Shown in pieces: positions 402 through 37,021 of a DNA stretch of 64,000 bases; position 1 is the first letter of the stretch, and the number at the start of each line of letters is the position of its first letter. The notes under the pieces are model-generated. The model saw only the letters and a program-made list of their open reading frames with translations, was not told the origin of the DNA and ran no database searches. Both the position numbers and the translations under genes were made by a program. This stretch comes from Sipunculus nudus (taxonomy: Eukaryota > Annelida > Sipuncula > Golfingiida > Sipunculidae): contig CM049318.1 in NCBI GenBank assembly GCA_026874595.1, forward strand, positions 34,183,956 through 34,247,955, given 5' to 3'.

Positions 402-515
402 GGAAATGCTCCGACGTCTTAGCCTGCAAGGGCGGTATGTGTGTGATGACTGGCAAGAACAACTCAAAATGTCTCTGCCCAGCGGGCAAGAAACCTAGGG
501 GGGAATCATGTGTCG
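402..515 (+). CDS. EGF-like exon (receptor-protease gene)
   Basis: Internal exon bounded by an AG acceptor (400-401) and a GT donor (516), phase 1 at both ends, 114 nt. It encodes one EGF-like module with six cysteines spaced C-x5-C-x4-C-x9-C-x-C-x10-C, ending in GESCV. In LDL-receptor-related proteins a module like this caps a YWTD propeller, and the next exon here begins such a propeller. The last base joins the next exon to make an Asp codon (GESCV-D-SDDFPP). It is not the first exon of the gene: no signal peptide is visible and the 5' part must lie before base 1. It is the most upstream exon I can support. Confidence 0.75.
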
Positions 516-1988
516 GTCAGTAATCAGCAAATTCCACATTGTGTCCCTGTTAACAGTTACGGCGTTAATGTTTAAACAGGAGAATATATATATATATATA
601 TATCTTCCAATCCGGGTAGTAGGAGGTAATCCCAGGAGTAAACCTGATTTATAAACGCGAAACAAGAGCCGCAAAGGATGAGCAGTTCCGTTCCAGTTCG
701 GAGGCTGCGCTTTAATCCTGTTACAAGGATATCCCAACTGTGTCTTCAAATAACACTTGCTGGAAACAGTATATCCGTTCAAAATCACATTTAATCCTTT
801 CCTTTGTGTAGTTGCATTTCATAGAGCAACTATAAACACAGGAAACTATGCCGACGTAATGACAACGCACTCGACGCGTTGATCTATTCGTTGAGCCTAA
901 ATGGCTCCGGGTGTTAGCCTAGTACTTACTTGACCGTTAGAAAATCTCCACAACCCGATATAAATTAGAGCATACGGCTTTGCTGCACTAAAAAAACGTT
1001 TCTTTTAGCTGTTACTAAGCTCTACCGGCCATCTGTCGAAATACCGCCTTATTTTACCATATCTTCATGTTCATTCTGTGTCATCATCACTAAACCAATC
1101 AAATGTAAAAATATTCTGAATACTAAGTATTGCCCGGATAAATGAGTAGTTTTTATCGGAGTATGAAAACTCTATTTGATACCTATACGTTTGCTGTGTT
1201 ATTTTGATATGAACCAATAAGCTCGCTCGTCTAAATATGACAGAAAGCAAATACCGTCGTTTGTGGATATCAGATCTGAAAGCATTTGTAAAACTGCCCC
1301 AATAAACCGATTTCCTGCATTCTCAACGTGTCACGAAAACACCAAACACATAACTCCCATTAATAACTGATCATCACAACTAAATAAAGAAAACTTATAA
1401 ATCGGTCACAACGTATTTACCTATGAAAGACAACTAATAAATTACTATAACTGGCACTTAATGATTACATTTCGAACGAGATGTTGCTATTTTTACTTTT
1501 CATGCTGTAATTTGTGCACGAAATTGTTCGGATTCTGAATGTACTAATTATCTAATTTTTTTCCAAACTCAGCACTTCCCCAGGGTGGGATTGATATTTT
1601 GATGGTTTGTCAACACTCATTTCCATATATCTATGGAAATATGGATTTTAAGTGCCAAAAAATTAAGGCGATGAGAAAATACAGAATAAACTTATAAAAA
1701 GTCGCGCTGCAGTGGAGAAAATAAATGATAATTTTTTTAATGTGATAAGAAACCGATCAAATGTGGCTTTACTTTCTCTCAACATGTTATCTGTTTATCG
1801 GCAATTTAGTATCATTATCATTAATTGAAATATGCCAGAAATCATGTTGTAGACAAAACAAATAGAACAAGAGAAAGCTTAAAAACTGAACAATATAAAA
1901 CCTACTTATCTTGGTTAAATATTACTTTTATGTGTACCTTTTCTGCTGGGTGATATACTGTTGTGAGATTATACCCTTATCATTACAG
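516..1988 (+). other. intron, no other feature seen
   Basis: AT-rich non-coding DNA between the EGF exon and the first propeller exon. It contains a short (TA)n run at 582-602. I see no conserved coding signal or RNA gene. Confidence 0.6.
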
Positions 1989-2255
1989 ACAGCGACGACT
2001 TCCCGCCTCTCTGCTTCGTTTACGCTGTGGGCAATGCAATATGTTCGGATCACGTGCTTCAAGTGCAGGAGACGTCAAGATCAGATACATCAGGATGCTT
2101 TAAGAGATCCCCCGGCGAGGTCAGCGCCCTCTGTGTACATTCGTCATCTAAAACAGTCTACTTCTATCTTAGTGGAACTTCCTCGATACGAAGCCGGCGC
2201 CTTGACAAACAAAGCGCATCTGCAATTAAAATACGTTCATCTGGAGATGTCACTG
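1989..2255 (+). CDS. LDLR class B propeller exon, blades 1-2
   Basis: Acceptor ATTACAG (ends 1988) and donor GTGAG (from 2256); 267 nt, phase 1 to phase 1. It encodes 89 residues that begin SDDFPPLCFVYAVGNAI and read as the first two blades of a six-bladed YWTD-type propeller: PPLCFVYAVGNAICSDHVL, then VSALCVHSSSKTVYFYL with following SIRSRRL. The YWTD signature itself is degenerate here, as is common in outer blades. It joins the EGF exon and the next exon in frame (SGDVT-D-MAVDQSTGTLYWT). Such propellers bind ligands on the cell surface; no ligand can be named. Confidence 0.75.
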
Positions 2256-2528
2256 GTGAGGAACAAAATTATGCATCGATGTTGTAATTACTTCTGGGAT
2301 CCGTACAATCAAGAAAATTTGCGCGACCTGTTTTTTTTTTCTCTTCTTTTCTTGGAATGCCTCAGAATGTTTCTTTTTTGATATTTCATATATTTTATTC
2401 TCTTTCATCATCGACATCCCATCATTAAATCGAGCTCAAAGTGAACTAAATATGGTTCAATAAAAAAATAATATAATTAAATACAAAATCATTAAACACG
2501 TAGACAATTCAAACGACAATCCTCAAGT

Positions 2529-3980
2529 TTAACATCTGGTATTTAAAATGGAGAGTATTTTCCCCCATTTTTCCATATATTTATGTACTTCTCTTTCTTT
2601 TTCTGCTACCTTACGTTCGATTAATTCTTTATCTTTTATATACTTGTTAAATATCAAGAGCAAAGGGACTCTTCCTTGCTTACGATATTTTAAAATTACG
2701 AACTTATATGTCAATATCAATATATCAATTAGCTTTTTGTATGGAACATCACTTGAACACCCTGAATATTTTATTTCTCTCGTTAATGCTGGCATATAAA
2801 TCCTTGCTTGACTGGCCCAACTTGTAATATGAAAATAAAGAGATTTGGTAAAAATACATTCACAAGAAGATGACAAACAGATTCCGTATCCATGAAACCA
2901 TGCGAGCATCTATTCGTATCTGTTACTCTCCATATATATAACTTTTCGTTAACAGTCAAAATATTATGTAAAATTTTAAATTGGAATTGCCTCAAATACA
3001 TGTTCCTTGGTGTTATATATATATGCTTCAAAGCTTTCTACCAACAGAAATCGTTGGTTAAATCTCGTTGAAGATTTACTTTGTTCACTGGTTCTTCTAT
3101 TTTTTTTTCAGTATTGATCGATTAAACACTTGCTTAAAATTCGTTTCTCTAGATTAATGAATATATCCCCCATAGATATTATTTCGTCAGATAATATATC
3201 ATCATTAGACAAGCCTGTTTTTATACTATCTCTCGAACCACCTCCTGTAACCCTCTCCAGTGAATAACGTTAGAAGAATAAACAGTACTAACGGGAATCA
3301 CTTGTGAAATTTCTTTTTTCCGACCATCATCATGTAATATATGGTATATATATCTGATGCATATATCATCTTAATATTTAATATATACCTATCCTTCCTA
3401 GCAATATATATTTATTATTCCACAGCCGTTTTAATACGGTCTCTGAACTAATAGGTTCTACAGAGGTAAAATTTGACCATGCCAGTAAGCAGTGCTGATA
3501 GAACTTTGATACTGTTCTTTTTATGCAACTAATGTCAAAATTAACTGATATATTTGACACTCCTCCTACACTTCTTAAGAAGTGATTCGGTATTTCAATA
3601 CATTTTGCTTTCTTCAATATCTTCATTCTAACAACCCACATAATTCTTTGTGTTTCTATAATAGTACTTATATCTGGCAATCTAATGCCCCCTGCTTCTC
3701 TATCATTTAAAAGAACCTCATGTTTAATTTTCGGCTTTCTTCCATACCATATTAAGTCTGAAATACAGCTTTTAATTTTTTAACAAAGCTTGATGGAGGT
3801 TCTAGTATATGTGAAACATACAGTAATTTCGAAATGCCTAAAGCTTTAACAATTATAATTCTCCAATATATTTTCAATGCTCTTTGTTTCCAGATGTTAT
3901 GTTATAAAGGACTTCGATTTTATTGTGAATCCTATCAAAATTTAAAGTATTAGAACGTGTAGTGTCATACGTATAATAAA
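2529..3980 (-). mobile_element. Tx1/L1-like LINE, C-terminal part of ORF2 (relic)
   Basis: Minus-strand fragments in several frames resemble the post-reverse-transcriptase region of Tx1-clade LINE ORF2. The pieces, in element order, are KILGIYYTYD (about 3975), then LPDISTIIETQRIMWVVR-like sequence (3670-3380), then QFKILHNILTVNEKLY followed by TDTNRCSHG and ESVCHLL (3030-2800), a cysteine/histidine-rich C-terminal motif. Frameshifts and stops break it, so it is dead. It is the downstream half of the element continued at 6590-8100; the block between them is an insertion. Confidence 0.75.
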
Positions 3981-6590
3981 TCCCTAAAATTTTAATTGCG
4001 TCTTTACGTAAGTTGACCCATTTAATGTCGTCTTCACCTGCTGGTATATCCGTGCTAGTACCAGGCCAGGCAGCTTCACATTTGTTAGCGAAGCTGTGAC
4101 CTTATGCGATGGTACGGCGTCGTCCGGCGTACGTCGTGCGTCGTGCGTCGTCTGTACGTTAACCATAGCTATCTCAAAAACGGCAGAAGCGGGCATCACT
4201 AATTTTTTTGCAAATGATCAGTCATCTGATTTTGTCAATTTTTTTCAAACTGCATTTTCTTAGATTTTATAGGGAAAGCTAAAAAAGTTTTAAATATTTT
4301 CTTCTCCAAAACTGTCCAGCCAAATTGTCCAATATTTCACAGAAATAATTCCTGGGACAATCTCTCTCAAGTTTGTTCGATTGGTTCCAGTTCGGAGATT
4401 TTTGGCTGAGTTACAGGAGGTTGAACTTAGTCATCCGTCCCAAAAAGCACACTAAAATTAAAATCTCTGAAACGGCTAGAGCTAGAATCACCAAATTTTA
4501 TACCAATGTTTGTCACATATGTCATATCTGAAATTGAGGTATTGGTGGCGCCACCTACATTGATCTATTTTTTAAGCGAACATGTAATTTTAAACTCTTC
4601 TAGCTTATACACTGATTTATGATGAAACTGTTAAGCTGATTCGTTTAAATTTTACAAGAATTATTCTTTGGTAGGGTTCTGTCAGTTTTATAAAAATAGA
4701 TTGGGTAAATACAGCTTTAAAAAAAAGCATTGTAGCCAATTTAAAAAGGCTTTCTGTGTTTGAAAACAGATTTGACAATATGCTGGGTTTCAGCAGCCAA
4801 GCCAAGAGGTCACTCAGCACAAACAGGTGGGGTCCAGACATCACTATGGCAACTGACCTGGCTCTGGCGGATGTCTAGACAATGTGTCTATACGTCTAGA
4901 CACTGCGTCTAGACGTTTAGACACAATGTATAGACGCAGAATTCCCAGATTATTGGAACTATATCTTTCAGCTGTTTGAAAAAACTTGGTTTGCATTTTT
5001 AGCGAATCCGTGAGCTTATGCAATGGTGTGGCGTCTTCCGTCTTCCGTCGTCCGTCGTGCGTCATAGCTATCTCAAAAAGGGCAGAAGCTAGCATCACAA
5101 TTTTTTTTAAAAAAGATTAGTCATCTAAAAAATTATCGGATTTTTAGCAAACCTGTGAGCTTATGCAATGTTGCTGCATTGTCCATCGTGCGTCAGTGCG
5201 TCATGCATCGTCTCTAGTTAACCATACCTATCTCAAAAATGGCAGGAGCTAGCATCACCAATTTTTTTGCAAATAATCAGTCATCAGTCATCATTTGTTT
5301 ATTTTTTTCTAACTGCATTTTCTTAGATTTTTACATTGCGTCCATTTGTTCATCTGCCTTGGGATAAAAACACTCGTATCTTGGCAGTGGTTTGGCTTAT
5401 CCACCCGAAATTTTGCAGGTTTATACATCCTTGACAGCTTTCTTGATTTTATGGCAGGTGGCGCCACCACCTTCATTCAAATTTACGCTGCAAACATCTC
5501 TGGAACCATTTGACCGATTGGGCAAAAATTTTGCATGTTTATAGATCTCACATAGCTCTTTATCATACACAAAACTGGTGGCGCCACCTGCAATCATTTT
5601 TGCACAGTGTCCGTATATTTGTTTGTCGTGGGATAAAATCACTTATATCTCGGCAGTTGTTTGACATATCTGCCTAAAATTGTGCAGGTTTTTTTACATC
5701 TTGGATAGCTTTCTCGATTTTGTGGCAGGTAGCGCCACCTACATTTATGTATACTCTGCAAACATTCAGACATATCTCAGGACCTGTTTGACCTATCCCC
5801 GTGAAATTTTGCATATGTATAGATTTCACATAGCTCTTAATCATACACAAAAATGGTGGCGCTACCTGCCACCATTTTTGCAGAGCGTCCGTATGTTTTG
5901 CTGCCATAGGCTTAATTCACTCATATCTCAATGTGATTTGACTTATCTGCTTAAAATTTTGCATGTTTATACATCTTGGACAGTTTTCTAGATTTTGTGG
6001 TAGGTGGCGCCACCTACATTTATGTATATGCTGCAGATATTAGGCTTATATTTCAGGACAGGTTTGACATATCCCCCTGAAATTTTGCATGTGTATAGAA
6101 CTCACATAGCTCTTAATCAAACACAATAGTGGTGGCGCCACCTGTCACCATTTTTACACAGCGTCCGTCTGTTTGTCTGCCGTGGGCAAAAATCACTCGT
6201 ATCTCATTGGTGGTTTGACTTGTCTGCTTAAAATTTTGCATGTTTATACATCATGGACAGTTTTCTGGATTTTGTGGTAGGTGGCACAACCGACCTACAC
6301 ATTTCGGCTTCAAACATCCAGGCTATTATGCAACACACCTGACTCTATTTCCCCTTGCCACTCAATCCATGCCTCACTTCACACGTCCCAATCTGATTTT
6401 GGCAGATACAAGTAGTCGCTTGTTGACTACCTCTATTCTAGTTTTTGTGTTGTGTGCACCCATGCTAGAATTTCAGCAGTGATGTTTTTTTAATTGTTTC
6501 TTGTTCTAAGTGTTTAGTACTTGCATTATTGAAGCATTATACCTGGTGTAATCTCATTGCACAGGTTCGCATTAGGCCTGTAGGCCTTGT
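3981..6590. repeat. 2.6-kb repeat block inserted in the LINE, with GGTGGCGCCACC palindromes
   Basis: Non-coding block separating two halves of a minus-strand LINE. The left part has three related stretches ending in a CGTC/CGTG-rich run followed by a CATAGCTATCTCAAAAA-type sequence (about 4080-4200, 4990-5100, 5140-5290). The right part is a tandem array: about four units of roughly 270-277 bp, marked by the 12-bp perfect palindrome GGTGGCGCCACC or one- to three-base variants at about 5459, 5579, 5729, 5855, 6003, 6131 and 6280, with a single copy at about 4547. Each unit repeats 'ATTTTGCATGTTTATA' and 'CACATAGCTCTTAATCA'-like words. No coding potential is convincing. Confidence 0.85.
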
Positions 6591-8100
6591 TGTAATTTAT
6601 TTCGAGAGATGAAATCTTCTCAAATTGTTTCAAAAAATTTACCTAATCTCTTTCATAGATTGTGAATCCCTAAGAAAAAAGGGTGGGTCGTCTGCATTAA
6701 GTATTGCTTTATTTCAGAACCGTTTATACTTATACTATATTGGCAAATCATTATTGCTAACATTTCAATCACCAATATATAAAGATACGGGGCCAATGGA
6801 TCTCCTTGTCTTGTTCCTCGTTCCAAATGAAAGTACCTAGTGCTGTACCCATTGTTCATTACACAGCTTTCCAAGTTATTTTGCAATATATTAATCCACC
6901 GTAAGAATGTACTCACAAAACCAAATTTCTTTAAAGCATTGAATGAAAATACATGATCAATACCATCAAAAGCTGCTGCAAAATCTATTGCGAAAATGAT
7001 AACCCTTATCTATTCAAGGCCACAAAAATCTAATATATATCTGATAAGGAAGTTTGTATCAGAAATCCTTCTACCTTCCACGAATGCACTTTGGTCTTGA
7101 TCTATCAGTATTGGTAAACATTTTTTTAATCTTTCTGCCAAAACTTTGCTTAATATTTTTAAGTCCACGTTCATTAAACTGATAGGTCTCCAGGATGAAA
7201 GTCTCCTATTGTCTTTTCCAGGTTTTTCAATTAGTCTTATTACTGCTTGTCTTTGGCTAGTTGTAAGAGACCCCTTAGTAAAACTTTGATTAAAACAATT
7301 TAACAGGTCATCAATCAAGACATCAAAAAAGGTTATGTAAAATTCTTTTGGTAATCCGTCATTACCAGGTGTTTTGTTATTCTTCATATTTTTTAACGCA
7401 TTTTTAAAATCATCCTTAGAAATTTCACTTTCACATTGATCTACCTCGTTTCCAGGTATTGTCGGTACTTTTATATTATCTAAAATTTGTAAACATTCGT
7501 TTTCTTCTACATATAGTTTTCTCTTATATTTTTCTTGATAATATTCCTTGACTGATTTCATGATATTTTCTGGCTCTTGGACTTCTTTTCCATTTATTAT
7601 CAATTTTCTTATAGTAGATTTTATTTTATTTCTCTTTTCACTATTCATAAAGTACTTTGTACTGCGTTTACCCTCATCGTGCCACTGGACTCTGGTTCTC
7701 ACTATTAATCCTTCTACATATGCTTTATAAAATTGTTCATGCTCCAGTTGGCGATGATCATATTGTACCAGATTAAGAGTTTTATCATTTGATAAGTTAT
7801 TTTCTGCTTGTGCGGCATTTTGTTTAAGGCTCTCTAATTTCTTCCTTGCTTGCTTTTGTTTTTTCTTAGTATACTTAATTGTAATTTCTCTTATTTTGTA
7901 TTTTAAATATTCCCAACTGGTCATATCATCCATGGTGTCTTTATCGTTGTCTCGCAAATTTTTAACGTTTTCTCTAATTAAAATATTGTACTCTTGGTCG
8001 TTCAACAATAAGGTATTATATTTCCAATGTGATTGACCATAACCTGTTTTTAACCATGACAGAAAGTAGTCATATTCAAGCCAAGCGTACATATTACGAA
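6590..8100 (-). mobile_element. Tx1/L1-like LINE, ORF2 linker and reverse transcriptase (5'-truncated)
   Basis: A 360-residue minus-strand reading frame (8092 to 7010) carries the region before and including the start of a LINE reverse transcriptase: DEGKRSTKYFMNSEKRNK, NNKTPGNDGLPKEFY, SSWRPISLMNVDLKILSKVL and DQSAFVEGRRISDTN. The frame breaks near 7010 and continues as AFDGIDHVFSFNALKKFGF, then RGTRQGDPLAPYLYILVIE (6900-6740). The catalytic ADD lies about 6690-6705 in another frame (NADDPPFF), so a frameshift has broken the polymerase. The N-terminal endonuclease is absent, as expected for a 5'-truncated insertion. Clade call is from overall motif pattern (Tx1/L1-like), not a phylogeny. Confidence 0.85.
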
Positions 8101-8680
8101 ATTTCGATGCGATACGATTTCGTAATACCCTATCGCAGCGTTATATCATAAATACCTAAGATTCATATCGCATTTTTCCATACACTATACGTATTCGTAC
8201 AAACGGGGATGGGATAATTATATCAAATACTGTTTAAAAAACATTGCTGCTTATTAGATGGTCGGTTTTATTAATCGCACAAAATCGGTTTTACGCACCG
8301 AGAACAGGAAATAAATTTAGGGTAGGACAAGAAAAAGGACTAAGCCACTAAAGTCCAGCGTACACATTAAAAAATTTGTAATTTTTAATGGCATCTACTT
8401 CTGTGCCCAGTACCCGGATGAACGACGCAAGGAGCCATCAGAAGTTCATATTTACTTTCCAATTCCAGTACATAATGTGAATGCAACATCAAAATCATAA
8501 ATGTGAGCCTGTAAGCCCAATATAATATTAAGTGTGGTCAATTTTTTTAATGTCGTTTAATGTTACAGACAGGAAATTGCTCTTGTTTGTGACGCGTGCC
8601 AACTCAAATGCCTTCGAATTAAGAACATTTGTTTAACTGACGTGACTACCACAGCCCTTATTAAGTAATTTTGGTAATTG

Positions 8681-9245: not shown

Positions 9246-9390
9246 ACATGGCTGTTGACCAGAGTACAGGTACACTTTACTGGACGCTTATGAACCAAAA
9301 TCTCATACGCGTATGGAAGGAGGGCATATCCATGACATGGAAATATCCAGTAATCAGACCTTACGCAATCACAGTGCATGCAGGAAAAAG
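9246..9390 (+). CDS. LDLR class B propeller exon, blade 3 (YWT)
   Basis: Acceptor TTGCAG (ends 9245), donor GTAAC (from 9391); 145 nt, phase 1 to phase 2. It encodes MAVDQSTGTLYWTLMNQNL and onward to a PYAITVHAGKR end, with a clear YWT signature. The Asp made at the upstream junction gives VT-D-MAVD, the normal approach to a YWTD blade. The final two bases (AG) combine with the first base of the next exon to give Arg. Confidence 0.85.
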
Positions 9391-10316: not shown

Positions 10317-10448
10317 GATGGTATTCTGGAGCACGTTATCCGATCAGCCAAGTTTGAACTCTGCTCAACTTGATGGGGACAGCGTAACACAGATTTTGTC
10401 TGGCGGGCTAAAACACCCGAGTCAACTTGCTTTTGACGGGGACAACAG
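10317..10448 (+). CDS. LDLR class B propeller exon, blades 4-5
   Basis: Acceptor AAACAG (ends 10316), donor GTGGG (from 10449); 132 nt, phase 2 to phase 2. It encodes MVFWSTLSDQPSLNSAQLDG and ends PSQLAFDGDN-R. FWST replaces YWTD in blade 4; the 'xxAQLDG' turn and the PSQLAFD strand before the next YWTD are typical of the family. The donor GTGGGT is acceptable and keeps the frame to the next exon. Confidence 0.85.
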
Positions 10449-11931: not shown

Positions 11932-12043
11932 GCTATACTGGACAGACAAGCATGAATCTTCAATCAATTCCGTCAGACTGGATGGTACGGATAAAAGAAA
12001 ACATCTTCACCGGACGAGTGTCTTTGGTATAGCATTATGGCAG
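11932..12043 (+). CDS. LDLR class B propeller exon, blade 5 (YWTD)
   Basis: Acceptor GACTTAAG (ends 11931), donor GTATG (from 12044); 112 nt, phase 2 to phase 0. It encodes LYWTDKHESSINSVRLDG, a canonical YWTD plus RLDG blade, then a VFGIALWQ strand that leads into blade 6. This is the clearest LDL-receptor class B repeat in the window. Confidence 0.9.
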
Positions 12044-17975: not shown

Positions 17976-18108
17976 GGTTATCTTGCATGGACGGAGACTG
18001 GCCCTACAACAATCGTGTGGGCTATAAATGATAACGGCATTATGCCTACCGGTCGCCATGAGTACACTGATCCTTCCTTTACACATCGGCGGCCAAGGCA
18101 GACTTTTC
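17976..18108 (+). CDS. LDLR class B propeller exon, blade 6
   Basis: Acceptor ACTTCAG (ends 17975); encodes GYLAWTETGPTTIVWAINDN, the sixth propeller blade with YLAWTE in place of YWTD, followed by a RRPRQTF tail. The proposed end uses donor GTTTAG at 18109, which is weak, but it gives 133 nt, phase 0 to phase 1, and joins the next exon as RPRQTF-L-HGPCEQ, exactly the proline/glutamine link that precedes an EGF cap in this family. A GTCGCC site near 18051 is an alternative in the same phase but would drop the link. The boundary is therefore less sure than the exon. Confidence 0.75.
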
Positions 18109-18886: not shown

Positions 18887-19015
18887 TCCATGGACCTTGT
18901 GAGCAGCCTGGTAACGGCGGGTGTGATCAGTTCTGTTTCGCCAGGTCTTCCACCATGAGGGTCTGCAGATGCGGCACAGGCTTCACGTTAAAGAGTGATG
19001 GCTATTCGTGTACTT
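18887..19015 (+). CDS. EGF-like exon closing the propeller
   Basis: Acceptor GGTAAAG (ends 18886), donor GTAAG (from 19016); 129 nt, phase 1 to phase 1. It encodes an LRP-type EGF module: GPCEQPGNGGCDQFC, then CRCGTGF and YSC, with cysteine spacing C-x7-C-x3-C-x9-C-x-C-x12-C. The GNGGCDQFC stretch is the hallmark of the EGF module that packs under a YWTD propeller. It ends in phase 1, matching the sushi exon that follows. Confidence 0.9.
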
Positions 19016-20204: not shown

Positions 20205-20381
20205 TGACAGGGTGTCCGGAACTGGCCTACCTGACCCATGGTTACTGGGACTGTCCTAACGGAACTAGGTTTAAATCTACCTGCAAAGCTAAATGTTCTG
20301 AAGGGCATAAATTACTTGGAGATGCCGGCGCCACATGTGGAAATGACGGTTCCTGGATATCTTACGAGACCTCGTGCACGG
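20205..20381 (+). CDS. sushi/CCP exon 1
   Basis: Acceptor GTGTTCAG (ends 20204), donor GTAAG (from 20382); 177 nt, phase 1 to phase 1. It encodes one sushi (complement control protein) module with six cysteines: GCPELAYLTHGYWDC, STCKAKC, ATCGNDGSW and SC. The GxW near the end and the spacing fit the family; the extra cysteine pair resembles sushi modules of selectin/polydom type. It is one of three near-identical exons in tandem and directly follows the EGF module in frame. Such modules bind ligands extracellularly. Confidence 0.9.
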
Positions 20382-22195: not shown

Positions 22196-22372
22196 TGATA
22201 GAGTGTCCGGAATTTGCCTCCCTGACCAACGGTTACTGGGACTGTCCTAACGGAACTACGTATAATTCCACCTGCAAAGCTAAATGTTCTGAAGGACATA
22301 AGTTACATGGAGATGCCACGGCCACATGTGTATATGACGGTTCCTGGATATCATAGGGGACCTCATGCGCGG
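22196..22372 (+). pseudogene. sushi/CCP exon 2, with in-frame stop
   Basis: Same length, phase (1-1) and splice-site context as sushi exon 1 (acceptor TATTCAG, donor GTGAG), so it is clearly a duplicate. The codon at 22354-22356 is TAG where the sister exons have TAC (Tyr), giving WIS-stop. All six cysteine codons remain. If included, it would end the protein before the membrane and protease parts. Because the exon is symmetric (177 nt, phase 1-1), skipping it keeps the frame from sushi 1 to sushi 3. It may be a dying exon, a regulated poison exon, or an assembly/allele error. Confidence 0.85.
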
Positions 22373-23827: not shown

Positions 23828-24004
23828 TGATACAATGTCCGGAACTTGCCTCTCTGACCAACGGTTACTGGGACTGTCCTAACGGAACTAGGTTTAATTC
23901 CACTTGCAAAGCTAAATGTTCTGACGGACATAAGTTACATGGAGATGCCTCGGCCATATGTGGAAATGATGGTTTCTGGATATCATACGAGAACTCATGC
24001 ACGG
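23828..24004 (+). CDS. sushi/CCP exon 3
   Basis: Acceptor TATTCAG (ends 23827), donor GTAAG (from 24005); 177 nt, phase 1-1, open throughout. It encodes QCPELASLTNGYWDC and ends YENSC, with the same six-cysteine pattern as sushi exon 1. It is 1632 bp after sushi exon 2, and the introns are duplicated as well. Its last base can join the transmembrane exon at 30385 to give an Ala codon. Confidence 0.9.
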
Positions 24005-26270: not shown

Positions 26271-26295
26271 TAAGGTGAGCTGGAACTTTTTTGCA

Positions 26296-26298
<3 letters not shown>

Positions 26299-26347
<49 letters not shown>
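26299..26347. repeat. (TA)n microsatellite
   Basis: Pure TA run just downstream of the 410-bp array. Confidence 0.97.
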
Positions 26348-26352
<5 letters not shown>

Positions 26353-26359
26353 ATGTTTA

Positions 26360-28424: not shown

Positions 28425-29238
28425 CTACAAGATAAAAAATAAAAAAATGATTACAATGAATTTATAAAATTGTATAAAAATTAATTACAATTAAATTTAA
28501 ATAAACAAAGAATATGACTGTACTTTTTGGATTGGTATATCAGCTCATACATGAGTCTGTAAAATAAATAAAAGGCTTATTTTGTATGGACGTGTGTTGA
28601 TATATCATAAACTGTCACAAGCTAAATGCAATGTCAGTGACAATTGTAAACGGGGTGGTTGATTCACTGATTATCGCCCACGTAACGAATGAAAGTATGA
28701 CGTATATACATGAATCTACAGCCTACTGACATATAATATTATTAATTTCCTATCTCATGGGATGGTATTGAAAAAACAGAGACATGGAATAAGCCGAAAT
28801 TAACGTGCTTAATTTTATATATGACATCGTGTCCGTTTGCAAAGGGGAGGGCGCTTCGAGTATTAACAAAGACGGTATCAGCCATCTCAGTCATTCTATG
28901 TCTTACATAGACGTTGACAAATATCGAAACATTATTTTACTTGATGTTTAACAGACACAGACTCATTTATTTATATGCATTTCAATATATCGTCTGCTTG
29001 GCCATATACGATTATTTGGAACAGCTCCGAACCAATGCAAATGGCGTCGCCCATGTACCTCGGGACCCTTCGTCCATTACCGGAATCATTCGGACTCAGA
29101 TTCATACATTTGATCAGCGACGATCTTTTATCAATTATATTGGCCCGAAGAATTATAGTTAGATAAATCGTAAGTGGTTTAAGTATTAGATAAAGTTTGT
29201 CCAGCACCCAAACATAAGAACACGGCAAGGCTGCTTAC

Positions 29239-29272
29239 CTTCGAACTCGCCGTCCAAAATCATGCTGCACAT
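29239..29272 (-). CDS. candidate first coding exon of a small minus-strand gene
   Basis: On the minus strand the sequence reads MCSMILDGEFE and then a consensus donor (GAAG|GTAAG, donor at 29238-29234), phase 1. The start is either of two in-frame ATGs (29272 or 29263); the second has A at -3. Upstream the frame stays open for nine more codons (ILIGENLKR) to a TAA at about 29308-29310, so a longer exon with a different start is possible. Joining to 28424 gives E-G-WLMDL in frame across an 814-bp intron. The gene would lie inside an intron of the plus-strand receptor gene. Confidence 0.35.
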
Positions 29273-29309
29273 ACGCTTCAAGTTTTCTCCAATTAAAATG
29301 GCGTCTGTG

Positions 29310-30384
29310 CATTATAGAACCGCACAAAATTAATATTTGAGATCCCATTGGACTATCTGATCACATGACAGGGGAATCCCAACGCCACCATGCATATGAT
29401 TGTTGATTCAAAATACGTCGATTCACGGAGGGGAAGCCAGGGGTGGTCACAGGAAATAGGGCAAAATCTGTCTACGCACGAACCGCGATGCCCTCTGGCG
29501 GAATCTGATATAACTACCTATGGGATTCTCATTTAACATAACCTGACCTGGTAAATACATATGTGTCACTGAGACAAAATTCATTGTAAGCCTATCTTTA
29601 TCATACCATTTGCCGGAAATAATAATGATTACAAATGCAGGCAAACATTGCAGACATACCTTCTGTATGCCAGTTCCTTTTTTGCTATTTTGTATGCCAC
29701 TTTCATCTCCAATCTCACTGCTACTATGAACATTTACTATCCTTGTTAAGGTTTCATGTGAAGTTTTGCTTAGAGTTACAGATGCAATAAATGGGGTGCT
29801 TCATGTATGCAAATACGATGCAAATCCCTGTTCGCCAGTCTTTGATGTACTGAAAGCATAATTATAATCGTTTGATAGGAGATGGGTTGTTCGTTAAAAT
29901 AATGTATGGACACATAACAACATTGTAATATATGATATGAATACATCAAGACAGGGAATTATAATCATATACATAATTATAATGGTCAATGGAGATATTT
30001 AACCAAGTGCAACATCTAGCAAGTAATTTGTTTTACTTTTTTTCTAAATCATCAAATATCAAATATATAGTTTCAATAATTTGTAATGGAATAAACATCT
30101 TCTTTTAAATATATGGATAAATAATTTTTTGTTGATTATTAACTGCCCCATACACAATATGAATTTAATAATGAATATATTATCTATTTTTCAATGTACA
30201 GTATAATATGAATAATAAATAGAACACGTAATTCATTATTATGAACAAATGAGGAATGGAATATCGGAGTAAGTGTCGTGTTTTCAGTGTATTACTCTCT
30301 GTTTTATTTTATAACGTTAAGCTACAGTACAAATATTTTTATACTGAGTTAATCATGCAAACAATTGGCTTTGAATTTAAACAG
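29310..30384 (+). other. intron, no feature recognised
   Basis: Non-coding in the plus-strand model. 29400-29650 is less AT-rich and might hold promoter sequence for the minus-strand candidate, but no motif is decisive. 29880-30384 is strongly AT-rich. Confidence 0.4.
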
Positions 30385-30581
30385 CTCAAATAAACCTATA
30401 CACCATTTTGGGCGGATCCATTGCGGGGATAGCTGCCATGGTATTTGCGTTGATTGGCGTTGGCGTGTTTAGATCACACAGACAGAAACTCTGTGGCCCT
30501 AGAACAGGTGTGGTAGAGGACGGCACTGGAATTATCTTACCAGAGGACAGGAGTATTGATAATGAGAGGAACATTGAGATG
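30385..30581 (+). CDS. transmembrane and juxtamembrane exon
   Basis: Acceptor TTTAAACAG (ends 30384), donor GTGAG (from 30582); 197 nt, phase 1 to phase 0. It encodes a hydrophobic, glycine/alanine-rich helix (ILGGSIAGIAAMVFALIG, then VGVF) followed at once by RSHRQK, a basic stop-transfer sequence that predicts the C-terminal side in the cytoplasm. Then comes an acidic linker ending ERNIEM. Phase 1 at the start matches the sushi exons upstream, and phase 0 at the end matches the protease exon, so it ties the extracellular modules to the S8 domain. If transcription instead starts nearby, this could be the signal-anchor of a separate protein, but no ATG precedes the helix in frame within the exon. 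Confidence 0.75.
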
Positions 30582-31411
30582 GTGAGTTTTAATATGGATT
30601 TTATATAAGCTAAGTTTATTATCAACTTGTCGTCAAGACCTTTGGGTCACTTGTTGAATAAGTATAACAGTTTAATGCAGTGGCTTGATAAATAACGAAA
30701 ATTTTTCTGTTCTAATAAGACAGAAAAAGCATTGATTGGTGTGATAATAAATGTTCGAATTACCGGTGGCCATGAGTCAAAAACTAACGAATTATGGCTT
30801 CATCTGAATATGTTTATCCCTAAGCTTTCAATAATATAATATAATTGTTTGGCCTTTGGTGTTTTGTTCACCTGTGATGTCGCATAGAACTTTGCATCAA
30901 ATCCTCTGAATTCCTTACATCTTGGATTTATTATGTAATTTGAATCTTTCTTTATATAATTAACTTCTATATAAAATAGCAAGAATCAGATATAAACACG
31001 TGTTATCATGATAATATGGCTAAATGTTTCTTTTTTTTGTAAAACGGGTTTTACTCTTAGGTAATGTAGGAAATGGTCTTGTGATTTGTGCCTTTTCGTC
31101 GACTGCCGTGATGGATCCTGAAACAGTTTTATAATATGGATAAGATTAGCATAGTGTGATAATTCTCATATTTGTCCTTATGCATTTTTTTCTAGAATCT
31201 GAATCTGTATTGTATTGAACGATATTTCAACTCGATATAATTCAGTTTCGTTTTAATCTTGCAAACTTTGTATGCAATATAGTCAAAGTTTAAGGTGCAT
31301 GTCAAAATTATTGGCGTACTTGTATGAGCTATGTCAAACTCTTAATATGTTTTCCTGTAATAAATTTTCATTAAATTCAGTCTTGAGTTGAATACTTTGT
31401 TTTAAATTTAG

Positions 31412-31823
31412 GAACCTGTGGCAAACGAAGGTCAGGCATTCACTTTGCTCTCACTGCAGGAAGAGAACTGGGCATACAAAGATGTTGCAAAGTGGGGCGC
31501 CTGTGATGTCATCGACCCTGCAACCATCCCTGTTACAATTGCCATTGTGGACTCTGGTGTCCAGATGAATCACCCTTATCTAACAGAATGGGAGCCACAC
31601 TTCATCCAGCATATCTCCTGTGTCGATGACAACGGAAGTGAGGCTGCAAGGAATGATCACTATGGTCACGGGACATTTATTGCTGGGATTATCTGCCACA
31701 TGCTTTCAGCGGTCAGACCGTATGTTCACATCATAAACATCAAAGCACTCAATGATTTGGGAGAGCTCCACCTGGACTGCTTCTGGAAAGCGATGGAAAA
31801 ACTGTCCGACTTCCAAAACATAG
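31412..31823 (+). CDS. subtilisin-like S8 protease exon: Asp and His of the triad
   Basis: Acceptor AATTTAG (ends 31411), donor GTAAG (from 31824); 412 nt, phase 0 to phase 1, 137 residues. It begins EPVANEGQAF and encodes the N-terminal half of a peptidase S8 (subtilase) fold: TIAIVDSGVQMNHPYL holds the catalytic Asp (codon 31550-31552) and HYGHGTFIAGII holds the catalytic His (31667-31669), 39 residues apart, followed by a VHIINIKALND strand. There is no pro-peptide-like segment and no signal peptide directly before it. In the joined model the domain lies about 40 residues after the transmembrane helix, on the cytoplasmic side. Subtilases cleave peptide bonds through a Ser-His-Asp triad; the substrate is unknown. 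Confidence 0.93.
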
Positions 31824-32595
31824 GTAAGGTGTAAAAATGTGGCATTGGGGTACTAGACCAATTTTACAGGAAATATGGTTCACTTGTTTTCTTGTTTTTA
31901 CTTTCACACTGATGTGAGCAAGCTTGGTGCAAGCAAGTCGGACTTGAATAAAGAATTGGTTCTAAAATGATTAAACCCACCAACAGACCAATTAATGAAA
32001 TGTAAAGTCAATTAAACGACGAAACCACATAGCAAACTTATTTATCGTGTAATCGTACACTTAGTTACTATCATGATGTATTACATTATCGCGTGTATCC
32101 TAAATGGTTTAAATGAAAGAGAAAGTTTGCATCGCCAAATTAATAAGAATTCTCTGAAGCCTTTTAAGTGGAGCCACGAAAGCTGAGTATTTATGCCAAT
32201 TAAGTTTTGTCAAAGCCAACCACAATTGTAACAACCACAAACACTCCGGCTTCTTTAGTGTGCATGGTACAAAATTCTGTCAACATACCTTAAGATGGAA
32301 AAAGTAAAGCAAATGTTAAGGCATAAGGCCTTTTTAAAGGCATATATATTGTGGGTACATTTCATCACGAAGTTTGATTAATAAAATGAAGCTTATGACA
32401 TTGCCCGAAAGTATTCACAGTCTATGTTGATAACCCTTTTATATCGAAGTGGTATTTAAATTATAAATTAAGATTAGTGTGTTTATTCATTGTTACATAA
32501 TCAAAATATAATTGTTAAAAATTAAACAGAGGTTAAAGAGGTAAGTGGTATGACATGCACTCGAATGTCGCCGCCTGCTTATCTTCGTCTTTCAG

Positions 32596-32684
32596 ATGTC
32601 GTGTGCCTGGCCGTAGGATTTGAGGAAACTCCAGAAGAGACTCTTATGAAGAGGAATATGTTGGCAGACCTCTCAAACAGGACG
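32596..32684 (+). CDS. subtilisin-like S8 protease exon, central helix
   Basis: Acceptor TCTTTCAG (ends 32595), donor GTAAC (from 32685); 89 nt. It opens in phase 1, completing an Asp codon with the previous exon (QNI-D-VVCLAVGFEETPEET), and encodes the strand and the following helix (LMKRNMLADLSNRT) that in subtilases precede the oxyanion Asn segment. It ends in phase 0. The next recognisable exon opens in phase 1, so a 3n+1 piece coding for the beta strand before AAASNYG is missing from my model. Confidence 0.8.
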
Positions 32685-33652
32685 GTAACAAATGTTATTT
32701 CATTCAATTTCAGTCCACTTTCAGCCATGCTAGGCCATGGGGAAATTGCTGTCATTCATCAGTGTCCTTTCTGAGTAGTACAGGTGATTTTTACTTTTGT
32801 ATAATGTTTATGTCGTATTATCTCAAGTGTGATCTACTTAATGTCTTGGCTTCCGTCCATCCTCCGTCGTCTGAGGAGTATTCTGCCTTCTTCGGTTCTT
32901 TCTCTTTATGTCAGAAAACTTCAGTATTTGTATATATCTGGGGCAAATTGTTCTGCAAAACCAAACAATTGGATTTCTTTTTTATACTTGTAGTACTTGG
33001 AAAAATATATTTGACAAGTGTTGTTTATTCATTGACCTTGGTGAAGCTAGCCGATTATAAATGAATGCTTAATCTTACCCTACGTTTCTGCTCCCTTTTC
33101 GCGTTTACCCGTTTGTCACTTTGGATTTTTATGTCAGCATAATGCATAGTGTTGTATTGGACTTAATTTGATAGAATTGTAAATGTCCAGTTGAAAAGTT
33201 ACGTTTGTAATCAAATCCTTTTTCCCTTTTTATACAATTGGTATTAATCATGACGCTTGATGCTTCTGTGTCAGTGTAGTCACATCTTGGTCTGGTCATA
33301 AATTATTATTTTCCCTAAGATTGTATTCAGAATTCAACGGTTAGTGGTTTATTTAAATATTTTTGCACTTTTATTGAATAATAGCCACACAAACTATTGT
33401 TTGAAAAAGTTCTTGTTTGACAACGACGTATCTTACCTGAGTCATGAAAATAAATCCCCTCTGTTTACGCCAAAATATTGAGTGTGATGACCGATAGTCT
33501 CTTGTAAATTAGTCGCGTCAGTATAACTTGTGTATATTTACATAAATTAATGTTAAACATGGGTATTAAATATAAGCATCAATAAGACATGTTAATATTA
33601 CTGGAAGATATGGTTTCTATGTATTTATCTATTTATCTGTGGGCAATGATAG

Positions 33653-33943
33653 CAGCAGCTTCAAACTATGGTGTACCAGGCCCAGATAGCATAGCATGGC
33701 CAGCTAGGAGACTGATCGCTGTGGGCAGTCATGATAAACATTTCCGATGCAGCTCCTTCAGTCCCCAGGGCCAGCAGTTGGATGTCCTGGCCCCGGGAGA
33801 AGACCTGTGCTCACTGAATGCATCATTTAATATAAACAGTCCTTCAGAGTATATCAGAAGAGATTCAGGTACATCATTTGCTGCAGCTTACGCTACAGGA
33901 GTGGCTGCTCATTTTCTCCTCCAGGTGGCATCACGGGTACCAG
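33653..33943 (+). CDS. subtilisin-like S8 protease exon: oxyanion Asn and nucleophile Ser
   Basis: Encodes AASNYGVPGPDSIAWPARR with the oxyanion-hole Asn (33664-33666), an IAVGSHD strand, LDVLAPGEDL, and DSGTSFAAAYATGVAAHFL with the catalytic Ser (33874-33876). These are the expected motifs of the C-terminal half of an S8 domain. The donor is GTAGG (from 33944), phase 1. The start is less certain: three overlapping AG acceptors (33652, 33655, 33658) all give phase 1; extension upstream is also open and would add LWAMI, which resembles the missing beta strand, but no acceptor there gives the phase needed by the 32684 donor. Confidence 0.85.
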
Positions 33944-34597
33944 GTAGGTGCATTGTGTCAGACAGTTTCAAACTTAAAGCAAGAACAGGCTGGTGGATCC
34001 TTCTAGAACAGATAGGTGCATGCTTTTAGACAATTTCCACATTAAAGCTTGTTCAGGTTATTCTTTCTAGATGATTTCTTAAGAAAAGAGAATTAAAAAT
34101 GGTATACAATTTAAAACCATTGAAACACAAACTTACTTATATTAGTCCACAGCGTTTAAATGATGTATCAAATAGAAACTACTGCTTCAGTCTGGATTTT
34201 AAATCTACTTACGTTGAAGGTTTGCCAAATTAAAACTAAGAACGTTTTATTTTGACATTTTTGGCTGTGAACAAAGGCTCGCTTAGGCTCCTGATGGATA
34301 TAAAATTAGGCAGACAGGCATGATACGTATAAAACTTTAATATTTGTTGTAACCTACAGGTATGTTAATTATAAAAAATGCAGTGTGCCAAGTGCTCAAA
34401 GGGACACTGAATCTAATCTCTGGGTATAAAACTCACCTCTTCCACATGCGCATTCACACATCGAAATGTGATATTTTTATTTTGAATCGTTATGTTGTAC
34501 AGTTATGGAAAAAATGTCGATCTGATTTTCAAACGAAAAGTGCGGTTACATTTCCTTTCTTAATAAAATTATCATAATCCTCCTAATGATGTTATAG

Positions 34598-34687
34598 GAG
34601 TCTATATGACTGCCGATGTGTCAGAACCATACATTGATGGAACAATTTTCACACAATCTGCCCCTGTAAATGTCTCTGATGGAACTA
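34598..34687 (+). CDS. subtilase C-terminal region exon
   Basis: Acceptor TTATAG (ends 34597), donor GTATGT (from 34688); 90 nt, phase 1 to phase 1. It reads VYMTADVSEPYIDGTIFTQS and ends NVSDGT. It joins the Ser exon as RVPG-G-VYMTADV and the last exon as VSDGT-S-NAGIRRQ. No separate domain is recognised; it lies where the last helices of the subtilase fold would be. Being symmetric it could be an alternative exon. Confidence 0.65.
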
Positions 34688-35139
34688 GTATGTGTCAGAG
34701 GTAGTCGTTTTTCTCCCACGTTATTCGTCATGATGTATCATTTCAAGAAAATTATTGCATTATCAAAGAAAAGACCCCAAAAATATTACAACTGTCCCAA
34801 CTATTCATGATATAATGTGTCTTTTTATGTGATATCACGTTATGAGGACAAAGGTTAGGAAACAAAGTATAATTTTTTTAAATGACTTGCCTAATAAATG
34901 GAGAGAGGAGTTCAGCATACCCATATCATTGCAGAACATCTTTTTGGTGGAGATTAACGCCTCCATTTTCAATACTGACTAATCTTAATCTTAAGCTTTG
35001 TCTGTACACCATTCTGGTTTGAGATAACAGATAGGACGGTAGCACTCGCTTCCTTTCATTTTATTTTATATCTTGGTACCACGCATGCCCAAAGTCTACC
35101 ACACCTGCAGGTTCTGATGTGTTATCAACCCCGTTGTTG

Positions 35140-35345
35140 GGTCATAACTCCGAGGAACCCTTCCAAAGACACACTCGTTTGTTAGTGATGTACGGCTTTA
35201 CGGTAAAGCCTTCCCATTAAGCCTGTTGAGCTCTCAACCCAGGTTGGGGTCGACGATGAACATCTCGCCGGTCCTTGGCTGAGATTTGAGCTCACGACCT
35301 CCCGGCTTTGAGTCCTGTGCTACCCCCTAATCCGCAGAAGCCGGT
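35140..35345 (-). repeat. tRNA-related SINE, diverged, reverse orientation
   Basis: On the minus strand the 35345-35280 end shows degenerate A-box (GGATTAGGGGGTAGCACAGG) and B-box (GAGCTCAAATCTC) sequence, similar in layout to the element at 20060-20135. The word CCCATTAAGC is shared by both copies outside the tRNA-like part. Confidence 0.55.
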
Positions 35346-35569
35346 CACCATTATAGAATTTTACAAATTATATATATTAACCTAACTTTAATTTTTTTAA
35401 GCATTTCAAATGTTCATCTAATGCAGATAGGTGGCGGTGTCCACCGACTCCCTGCAGACCGTAGTGTTGCCGTTATCTATTGCAGTCGTTTCAGGTGTCC
35501 TTTACTTTGATCACTGCTTTGTATACATAGTTTTTGTGGTCTCGACACCAGGGCTGGCACAGGTCAAAG

Positions 35570-35800
35570 AATTGTAATCAGACAGATGGGGGGTGGGGTG
35601 GTATCGGCTTATGCATCAAACCAATGACAGCAGGGTGTCAAACTTAAAAGCTGGATGCGCAGTGCATCTGTACAACACAGGTATACAAAGCTGCGTGTAA
35701 AGCGAAGGAGATATAGAACGACTGCCGTGTATAACCGCTGCCTGAGGAGTGTACGCAGACAGGAATGGTTGAAGACGCATCCTCTGATGATTTTTAAAAG
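35570..35800 (+). repeat. half-copy of the fold-back element at 36300-36650
   Basis: It shares TGTATAACCGCTG with a following TGAGGAG (35738-35755) and CAGCAGGGTGTCAAAC-like sequence (35627-35645) with the right half of the fold-back element. Confidence 0.6.
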
Positions 35801-35908
35801 TCCATACCTCATATGACATGCGGTAGTAGAAGCAGTTTAGAAATACTTTTCATCTGTTTACAGATTATGTTGAAATTTGCAGGAGATGACATCCTTGAAT
35901 CTGATGAG

Positions 35909-35911
<3 letters not shown>

Positions 35912-35978
<67 letters not shown>
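35912..35978. repeat. (TA)n microsatellite
   Basis: Pure TA run of about 67 bp in the last intron of the receptor-protease gene. Confidence 0.97.
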
Positions 35979-35983
<5 letters not shown>

Positions 35984-36299
35984 AAGAATGAGGTTGACCC
36001 TGTGATAAATTATAATTAAGCCTTATTGATTACAAGTAATCTGTTTAGAGAGCTGACATGATTAATTAGAGTGAAATGTCGCCTTACGACCACCCAGCTA
36101 TCAATACAACCCCCGCTAAGAGGATCATTATTTTGGCCCGACTAAAGTTAATCATCATAAATACCTTACACAACCACCTCGCTCTCACGACCACTTTGAC
36201 TAGTAACGCAGGCAGCCGAGTTGGGGAGATTTCACTGTACATAGTCCTGTGCAGCTGAGTCAACAATGCCATTCTGTGTGGAATTTCTGCTATTACTTT

Positions 36300-36650
36300 T
36301 GAGCAGGTGGAGGGATACGCTCCTCAAGCAGCGGTTACACGCTGCATTCGTCCCAGATCTCTTTTCGTGTAATCGCTGCTTTGTATCGTATTGTCTGATA
36401 ACGCCGTTTCTGCACAGGGCCAAGAATCAGACCAATAGGAGCGGGTCCTGGTTTAATCAGAGACAGCGGGTGTCGCATGTTTAAAATCTGGAGCTTGGCG
36501 CATGCACTCATTGGTCTGATTTAAATTCTTTGCTACGTGCGCACCCTGGTGTTCAGACCAACAGAACCTTGCTATACAAAGGAGCGGTTTCCCAAAAAAT
36601 ATTTTGGACAACTGCATTGTATAACCGCTGTGTGAGGAGCGAAATAGAGG
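36300..36650. repeat. fold-back (long inverted repeat) element, about 350 bp
   Basis: The left arm (36310-36440) and the reverse complement of the right arm (36500-36650) align over most of their length: CGCTCCTC near the ends, CAGCGGTTA, CTTTGTAT, CACAGGG/CCAGGG and ATCAGACCAAT. Identity looks about 70-75% by eye. The centre is near 36470. This is the layout of a fold-back or MITE-type DNA transposon. It lies in the intron before the last exon. Confidence 0.75.
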
Positions 36651-36839
36651 GATAGACTCAGGAACTTTCCGATCATAAATACAACACATAACCACGAGGA
36701 TACAACAGGGGCAGAAGCACCTTAGAATGACAACCTACTATATTTCTACTTCTTATATCCAAACCTTTTTTCTTAGTTTGTCTTTGGAATTTTAAACAAA
36801 TGACAGTAACAGACATATGCAAATGATTTATGTTTATAG

Positions 36840-37021
36840 GTAATGCTGGGATTCGAAGGCAGATGACGTCGACAGATATGATGAAAGCCGTGCTTAGGCA
36901 CATGGCACGTGACAGCCAGCACACTGTCAGGGAAGGATACGGACCACTCAGACCTTTGTCAGTATTTGAAGATAATGACGCATTTCGGAATCTGGTGAAA
37001 AAAGCACTAAAGCGCCACTAA
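36840..37021 (+). CDS. terminal exon of the receptor-protease gene
   Basis: Acceptor TTTATAG with the exon opening at 36840 in phase 1; encodes NAGIRRQMTSTDMMKAVLRH and then a basic tail ending LVKKALKRH, with TAA at 37019-37021. MTSTDMMKAVLRHMARDS looks like the C-terminal helix that follows the Ser helix in S8 domains. It can follow 33943 directly or through the 34598-34687 exon, both in frame. The likely polyadenylation signal is AATAAA at 37305-37310. Confidence 0.8.

What the first reader, a model, noticed from the sequence alone, without database searches (positions are those of the whole stretch)
402..37021. A receptor-like protein whose cytoplasmic tail appears to be a subtilisin-like protease
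Seen: exons for EGF, six-bladed YWTD propeller, EGF, sushi modules, one transmembrane helix with a basic stop-transfer, and an S8 protease, all on one strand in this order, with matching intron phases at every junction but one. Known: LRP-type receptors normally end in short signalling tails, and animal S8 proteases (furin, PCSK, S1P, TPPII types) are secreted, luminal or soluble. Known also: some fungal intracellular immune receptors are reported with S8 domains as effectors. Inference: a surface receptor that signals by releasing or activating a cytosolic protease, possibly in innate recognition. I know of no described receptor with this order.
Basis: partly seen in the sequence, partly recalled or inferred. 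Interest (0 to 1): 0.88.

Follow-up and report, generated by a model that had tools for sequence, protein, structure and literature searches.

The report
Receptors with a built-in cytosolic subtilase
The gene in this window is one (apparently recently broken) copy of a family of animal cell-surface receptors, several with a TNF-receptor-like outside, whose inside end looks like a complete subtilisin-type protease, which would be a new way for a receptor to signal.

Summary
The window copy itself looks broken: sushi 2 has an in-frame TAG, and the exon carrying the S8 catalytic Ser is preceded by GG where two paralogs have AG. The architecture is supported by paralogs in the same genome. A repeats the exon order. 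B, D, L025, L026 and L027 have TNFR-type repeats upstream of the same S8 clade; D gives an uninterrupted 599-aa model, signal peptide-TNFR-TM-S8, 5 of 5 junctions in phase. A TM exon (phase 1 in, 0 out) precedes a phase-0 S8 exon at 6 of 12 S8 loci looked at; the other 6 were scanned only partly. Catalytic D/H/N/S are invariant in 8 of 8 aligned domains; S8 is under purifying selection (w about 0.2). The tree suggests TNFR-S8 is older and the YWTD/sushi ectodomain was swapped on. Best reading: surface receptors that signal through their own cytosolic protease. No RNA evidence; species unnamed; mechanism is inference.

The parts
402..515 (+). EGF exon, phase 1-1
   Evidence: Pfam EGF E 0.011, below cut-off; 76% identical exon in paralog A
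1989..2255 (+). propeller exon a, phase 1-1
   Evidence: w 0.43 versus A; no Pfam hit
9246..9390 (+). propeller exon b (LYWT), phase 1-2
   Evidence: w 0.17; no Pfam hit
10317..10448 (+). propeller exon c, phase 2-2
   Evidence: Ldl_recept_b E 0.0046, below cut-off
11932..12043 (+). propeller exon d (LYWTD), phase 2-0
   Evidence: Ldl_recept_b E 0.0022, below cut-off
17976..18051 (+). tentative propeller exon e, phase 0-1, weak donor
   Evidence: 78% identical stop-free segment in A; phases close
18887..19015 (+). EGF exon (FXa_inhibition/EGF_LRP2 type), phase 1-1
   Evidence: Pfam E 3.8e-9; w 0.13
20205..20381 (+). sushi exon 1, phase 1-1 (start 20205 or 20211)
   Evidence: Pfam Sushi E 2.3e-8
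22196..22372 (+). sushi exon 2, phase 1-1 (start 22196 or 22202), in-frame TAG at 22354
   Evidence: Pfam Sushi E 8.5e-9; stop seen
23828..24004 (+). sushi exon 3, phase 1-1
   Evidence: Pfam Sushi E 1.5e-8
30385..30581 (+). transmembrane helix, basic stop-transfer and juxtamembrane tail exon, phase 1 in, phase 0 out (ATG|GTGAGT)
   Evidence: same exon in A and B
31412..31823 (+). S8 exon a with catalytic Asp (VDSG) and His (GHGT), phase 0-1; no in-frame Met before the Asp
   Evidence: Pfam S8 E 1.6e-7
32596..32684 (+). S8 exon b, phase 1-0
33641..33642 (+). GG at the acceptor of S8 exon c; AG in paralogs A and B
33643..33943 (+). S8 exon c with oxyanion Asn (AAASN) and catalytic Ser (GTSFA), phase 0-1
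   Evidence: w 0.13 versus A
36840..37021 (+). last exon, S8 C-terminal helix and stop, phase 1 in
   Evidence: 90% identity to A, 88% to B

Best explanation
The locus is one copy of a family of single-pass type I receptors whose cytosolic tail is a subtilisin-family (S8) protease. The older form probably has a TNF-receptor-like cysteine-rich ectodomain (D, B, L025, and by weaker evidence L026 and L027, on the same chromosome). In one branch (window copy W and paralog A) exon shuffling put a YWTD/EGF/sushi ectodomain, of a kind also found without S8 elsewhere in the genome, in front of the TM+S8 exons. The window copy has probably lost protease function recently (lost acceptor before the Ser exon, stop in sushi 2), while A and B keep that acceptor and D has its S8 core in one open exon. 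Proposed working (inference): ligand binding clusters the receptors, as TNF receptors do; clustering brings together S8 domains that have no recognised propeptide and activates or releases them; they cleave cytosolic targets, so receptor and effector protease, separate in the death-receptor/caspase-8 route, are one polypeptide. A gasdermin, the target of a fungal S8 recognition protease, is one candidate substrate (speculative). Shown: exon order, phases, conservation, catalytic residues, paralogs. Inferred: joined transcript, cytosolic side, activity, clustering, substrate.
For: Exon chain and phases in the window; full-order paralog A; TM and S8 exons together in W, A and B. D: 6 exons, 1797 nt, 599 aa, no internal stop, 5 of 5 junction phases match, Pfam TNFR_c6 E 5.4e-8 and Peptidase_S8 E 1.8e-24 in one model. 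TM exon donor phase 0 and S8 acceptor phase 0 in W, A, B, D, L025, L027 (donors of B and L027 are my reading and less certain). TNFR_c6 scan: 24 matches at 17 loci up to E 1; 5 of the 17 lie 5-25 kb upstream, same strand, of an S8-clade exon (of the 8 loci over Pfam's cut-off, 2 do: B and L025), against about 0.003 expected by my arithmetic at random; none of 37 Death matches lies within 2 Mb of them. The S8 exon has no Met before the catalytic Asp in W, D, L025 and L027, so it needs an upstream coding exon. No alternative ATG exon with a strong phase-0 donor between TM and S8 in W, A or D; one in B. D, H, N, S invariant in 8 of 8 aligned S8 domains. dN/dS over S8: 0.22 W/A, 0.21 W/B, 0.20 A/B. 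Tree: W+A support 99, with B 100, with D 100. Ectodomain without S8 at C13:14.19-14.23 Mb (no S8 match there). One gasdermin-N locus present.
Against: No transcript or protein evidence of any kind. Tandem duplication would also copy two neighbouring genes together, so the loci are not independent. In the genome scan the TNFR matches of D (E 0.13), L026 (0.003) and L027 (0.007) are below Pfam's cut-off; D passes it as a joined model, L026 and L027 were not retested, and L027's TNFR stretch was not fetched. The TM exon shows no purifying selection between W and A (w 0.93; codon-position differences 5/5/5 in its first 47 codons), though 0.37 (W/B) and 0.54 (A/B) against B. Read past the donor, the TM exon reaches a stop within about 8 codons in W, A and D, so a short-tailed receptor is also possible. 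The S8 exon of B has a Met five residues in, and A one just before the Asp. At 6 of 12 S8 loci no TM exon was recognised: L026 (about 25 kb; weak TM-like ORFs, 1.9-2.2), L028, L029 and L030 (about 5 kb each; L029 two weak ORFs, L030 one at 2.5 without a strong donor), L035 and L036 (10 kb each). The window copy is broken. Ligand, activity and substrate are untested; the gasdermin locus is not near any S8 locus.
Confidence: 0.72

Rival explanations
1. Two neighbouring genes: a membrane receptor that ends with a short tail after the TM exon, and a separate cytosolic S8 protease gene just downstream, duplicated together as a pair.
For: The TM exon has an in-frame stop soon after its donor in W, A and D; tandem copying keeps neighbours together; related S8 genes without a recognised TM exon exist elsewhere in the genome; B's S8 exon has an early Met.
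Against: The S8 exon opens with a phase-0 acceptor in all six TM-bearing loci and has no Met before the catalytic Asp in four of the six; the TM exon donor is phase 0 in 6 of 6; no alternative start exon with a strong donor in W, A or D; the one longer stop-free segment shared by W and A in that intron differs evenly by codon position (3,5,4), unlike S8 exons; four dissimilar TM sequences (W/A/B, D, L025, L027) keep the arrangement.
Confidence: 0.15
2. The ectodomain belongs to one gene and TM+S8 to another in W and A only: a membrane-anchored cytosolic protease with its own start between sushi 3 and the TM exon.
For: The ectodomain exists without S8 at C13:14.2 Mb and C9:13.8 Mb; sister gene B has a different ectodomain.
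Against: Phases match sushi-to-TM in both W and A; in A the gap is only 1.85 kb; the stop-free segments shared there by W and A are short (18-24 aa) and were not tested further.
Confidence: 0.12
3. The S8 domain is outside the cell (membrane-anchored secreted subtilase of the PCSK/S1P kind), so this is a protease with receptor modules, not a receptor with a protease tail.
For: Known animal S8 membrane proteins (PCSK, S1P) have luminal catalytic domains (recalled).
Against: S8 follows the TM helix and a basic stop-transfer while TNFR modules precede it behind a signal peptide (read by eye) in D; no I9 propeptide or P domain was found; related genes with no signal peptide or TM recognised carry tandem S8.
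Confidence: 0.05
4. The S8 tail is a binding or scaffold domain without catalysis.
For: Some S8 relatives in this genome have lost catalytic residues.
Against: The catalytic D/H/N/S are invariant in 8 of 8 aligned domains, with w about 0.2.
Confidence: 0.1

Closest known systems
TNF receptor superfamily / death receptors with caspase-8
   Same: TNFR_c6 ectodomain, single TM, cytosolic effector output in D, B, L025
   Different: No Death match within 2 Mb; a subtilase is part of the receptor itself instead of a recruited caspase; in W and A no TNFR repeat was seen in the part mapped
Fungal HET-Q2-like S8 proteases and NLRs with S8 effector domains (PMC10197012, PMC12881547, passages read)
   Same: S8 protease used as the output of a recognition receptor; HET-Q2 is reported to cleave gasdermin HET-Q1
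   Different: Those are intracellular receptors with NLR or repeat-type sensors, in fungi; these are predicted surface receptors in an animal-type genome; no gasdermin neighbour
LRP/LDLR-type receptors (YWTD-EGF)
   Same: YWTD exons followed by an FXa_inhibition/EGF_LRP2-type EGF
   Different: Sushi array and S8 tail; no LDLa exon noticed by eye; no short signalling tail in the gene model
PCSK/furin and S1P transmembrane subtilases
   Same: S8 domain plus one TM helix
   Different: Order reversed (TM before S8), no I9 or P domain found; the 60 PDB matches shown (of 81) are subtilisin-type enzymes, none named furin or PCSK
Bacterial anti-phage subtilases (PADLOC subtilase, IetS)
   Same: Weak profile similarity (E 1.5e-13 and 9.9e-7 for D)
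   Different: Different architecture; generic S8 similarity cannot be excluded

Membership tests
Peptidase S8 (subtilase) | Asp, His, Ser triad with oxyanion Asn in a subtilisin-type profile | tested here: met
   Pfam E 1.8e-24 for D; D/H/N/S aligned with subtilisin and invariant in 8 of 8; in the window the Ser exon has lost its acceptor
Peptidase S8 (subtilase) | proteolytic activity | not testable with these tools
   needs expression and assay
TNF receptor superfamily | TNFR_c6 cysteine-rich repeats before a TM helix | tested here: met
   D, B, L025 over the cut-off; L026, L027 below it; TM exon found in D, B, L025, L027, not in L026. Not met for the window copy in the part mapped
TNF receptor superfamily | death domain or TRAF-binding tail | tested here: not met
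   no Death match within 2 Mb of these loci; TRAF-binding motifs not tested; not every TNFR has a death domain (recalled)
LRP/LDLR-type receptor | YWTD propeller followed by EGF, TM, short NPxY-type tail | tested here: not met
   propeller and EGF exons present but the tail leads to S8 by the gene model; six complete blades not shown
PCSK/furin-type protease | signal peptide, I9 propeptide, S8, P domain, luminal | tested here: not met
   no I9 or P domain hit; S8 lies after the TM helix
Fungal NLR/HET-Q2-like S8 receptor | NLR or repeat-type sensor on the same protein, gasdermin neighbour | tested here: not met
   TNFR or YWTD/sushi sensors instead; the one gasdermin locus found is on C16:15.8 Mb, away from the S8 loci

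The most novel reading that the evidence does not exclude
Animals have a class of protease-linked receptors: TNFR-like and LRP/sushi-like surface receptors whose own cytosolic subtilase domain is switched on by clustering and executes the response (for example gasdermin cleavage and cell death), bypassing adaptors and caspases, with ectodomains swapped by exon shuffling.
Probability: 0.4. Interest if true: 0.95.

Novelty: categorically new. Interest (0 to 1): 0.86.

Why it matters
Textbook enzyme-linked receptors carry kinases, phosphatases or cyclases; death receptors recruit caspases through adaptors (recalled). A receptor with its own cytosolic protease would be a new signalling class, would link animal surface receptors with the S8-based recognition systems described in fungi, and would give a directly testable, adaptor-free route from ligand to cytosolic proteolysis. 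It also shows one effector (TM+S8) attached to two unrelated ectodomains in one genome. If only the two-gene rival holds, the interest falls to a clustered receptor-protease pair.

Tried and rejected
Rejected: a window-only chimera or misassembly (the TM-S8 arrangement recurs at six loci). Rejected: my first idea of a hidden micro-exon between S8b and S8c; paralogs A and B show a plain phase-0 acceptor that the window has lost. Rejected as coding: the 22-aa segment upstream of S8a shared by W and A. Rejected as TM exons: TM-like ORFs near L026, L029 and L030 (weak score or no strong donor by eye); the background rate of such ORFs at score 2.2 or more is 22 in 448 kb of strand, D's own exon among them. 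Considered and dropped: the ORF at 34567-34701 as an exon (its counterpart in A has a stop). Led nowhere: prokaryote genome scan with D's S8 (26 pattern matches, no relative); profile scans of genome and viral collections (alignment not conserved enough); haemocyanin as a mollusc marker (0 matches and no positive control, so uninformative); ncbifam and padloc (only distant S8 similarity). Ten literature searches listed no paper that by title or abstract describes a TNFR or LRP-type receptor with an S8 tail; six of the ten returned no paper at all. Only open-licence PMC papers were searched; subscription journals and predicted-protein databases were not. PMC10197012, PMC12881547 and PMC7836458: passages read; others: listing only. 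No structure prediction was run: the tool takes window proteins letter for letter and the S8 domain here is split over four exons.
Full report
What is there. The window is C13:34183956-34247955 of an unnamed 1.43 Gb genome in 153 contigs. With splice sites read off, 15 exons from 402 to 37021 chain with matching phases at all 14 junctions. Thirteen of 15 listed starts have AG directly before them; sushi 3 uses an AG six bases upstream (the same site is available to sushi 1 and 2); S8 exon c has GG. One propeller exon (17976-18051) is tentative. Pfam support is strong for sushi, the second EGF and S8, and weak for the first EGF and the propeller exons.

The window copy looks broken. Sushi exon 2 has an in-frame TAG at 22354; since it is phase 1-1 it could be skipped. 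The exon with the oxyanion Asn and the catalytic Ser starts GCAATG in paralogs A and B directly after AG; the window has GG. The next AG would shift the frame. Other window exons still carry the mark of long constraint (dN/dS against A 0.13-0.43 for seven ectodomain exons, 0.22 for S8; sushi pairs were matched by similarity and may not be true counterparts), so the loss is probably recent. The TM exon is an exception (0.93 against A, 0.37 against B).

Paralogs. Own-genome searches found this S8 clade at 21 loci (25 matches at E up to 1; 18 loci at E up to 0.001). Paralog A (C13:34118239-34140562) repeats the exon order EGF, propeller, EGF, sushi x3, TM, S8 a-d with no stop in the matched exons. 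The whole block (aligned stretches 63-82% identical, introns included) is a segmental duplication reaching about 31 kb upstream of the window, with further exons including a YWTD blade. Because the block was copied whole, A alone does not prove one gene. B (minus strand, C13:34277342-34295123) has the same TM and S8 exons at 53% and 63-88% identity, but its upstream domain is TNFR_c6 (E 1.2e-7).

Gene D is the key. At C13:34089896-34098682 six exons give 1797 nt, 599 aa, no internal stop, and 5 of 5 junction phases match: signal peptide and first cysteine-rich exon, two TNFR exons, TM exon, S8 exon, last S8 exon. Pfam finds TNFR_c6 (E 5.4e-8) and Peptidase_S8 (E 1.8e-24) in the one model. The signal peptide and splice sites are my reading of the sequence, not a predictor's.

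The TM exon is phase 1 in, 0 out, and the S8 exon opens in phase 0, in W, A, B, D, L025 and L027 (donors in B and L027 less certain). That is 6 of 12 S8 loci looked at. None was recognised at L026 (about 25 kb), L028, L029, L030 (about 5 kb each), L035 or L036 (10 kb each); L026, L029 and L030 have TM-like ORFs of score 1.9-2.5 that I did not accept. The helices share little sequence between W/A/B, D, L025 and L027. A genome-wide TNFR_c6 scan gave 24 matches at 17 loci up to E 1; 5 of the 17 lie 5-25 kb upstream, same strand, of S8 exons (B, D, L025, L026, L027). Of these B and L025 are over Pfam's cut-off (2 of the 8 loci that are); D, L026 and L027 are not in that scan, though D is as a joined model. 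By my arithmetic about 0.003 of 17 would be expected at random, but the five sit in two clusters and are not independent. None of 37 Death matches lies within 2 Mb of them.

One gene or two? Against two genes: the S8 exon has no Met before the catalytic Asp in W, D, L025 and L027 (A has one just before it, B one five residues in); no alternative ATG exon with a strong phase-0 donor exists in the TM-S8 intron of W, A or D (one in B, possibly chance); the one longer stop-free segment shared by W and A there shows no codon-position bias (3,5,4), unlike S8a (11,12,26). For two genes: no RNA, in-frame stops soon after the TM donor in W, A and D, and tandem duplication.

Origin. A maximum-likelihood tree of ten S8 domains, rooted by me on three C15/C17 domains, groups W with A (support 99), then TNFR-type B (100), then TNFR-type D (100); L025 with L026/L027 has 80. 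On that rooting TNFR-S8 looks older and W/A acquired the YWTD/EGF/sushi ectodomain. Related ectodomains without any S8 match occur at C13:14188019-14231969 (EGF 58%, four propeller exons 63-75%, EGF 77%, then a long sushi array) and C9:13.81 Mb. A second S8 group (C13:55.8 Mb, C17) has tandem S8 domains, the upstream ones degenerate, with no TM recognised in the part scanned.

How it may work. S8 sits after a basic stop-transfer, so by the positive-inside rule (recalled) it faces the cytosol. No I9 propeptide or P domain was found. The catalytic D/H/N/S are invariant in 8 of 8 aligned domains. The most likely mechanism is activation by clustering, with the protease as direct effector. In fungi, S8 proteases act in recognition systems and HET-Q2 is reported to cleave gasdermin HET-Q1 (PMC10197012, PMC12881547, passages). 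This genome has one gasdermin-N locus, a candidate substrate only. Gasdermin E-like proteins are reported for an oyster and a gastropod (PMC7836458, passages).

What is not known. Species (mollusc not established; haemocyanin scan uninformative), expression, topology, activity, ligand and substrate. Ten literature searches listed no such receptor (see Tried and rejected for their limits). The verdict is that the family is probably real and new in kind, while the copy in the window is probably a broken member.

Noticed in passing
window 54221-54517, 54784-56149, 59257-59487 (+): Exons of a neighbouring multidomain gene or genes: MAM (E 7.2e-6), thrombospondin type 1 repeats (E 3.8e-17; the block appears twice) and a weak CUB (E 0.006, below cut-off).
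   Followed up: partly
window 7013-8140 (-) and 57668-57982 (+): Reverse transcriptase fragments (RVT_1 E 1.6e-8, and E 0.0091 below cut-off), the first inside an intron of the receptor gene.
   Followed up: no
L036 (C13:55816401-55826400, -) and L028 (C17): S8 genes with tandem S8 domains, the upstream ones with the catalytic Asp changed (Asn or Ser) and no TM recognised in the scanned stretch; possible soluble relatives of the receptor tails.
   Followed up: partly
C13:14188019-14231969 (+): EGF-YWTD-EGF exons related to the window gene, followed by a long sushi array and no S8 match: possible source of the swapped ectodomain.
   Followed up: partly
L010, L025, L027 and window TM exons: Juxtamembrane tails share a short leucine-containing motif (KKLMP, DPLLP, TKLMP; GIILP in the window), possibly a sorting signal.
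   Followed up: no
C16:13471264 (-) and C16:13430992 (-): A TNFR_c6 cluster with a Death match 40 kb downstream on the same strand, possibly a conventional death receptor.
   Followed up: no
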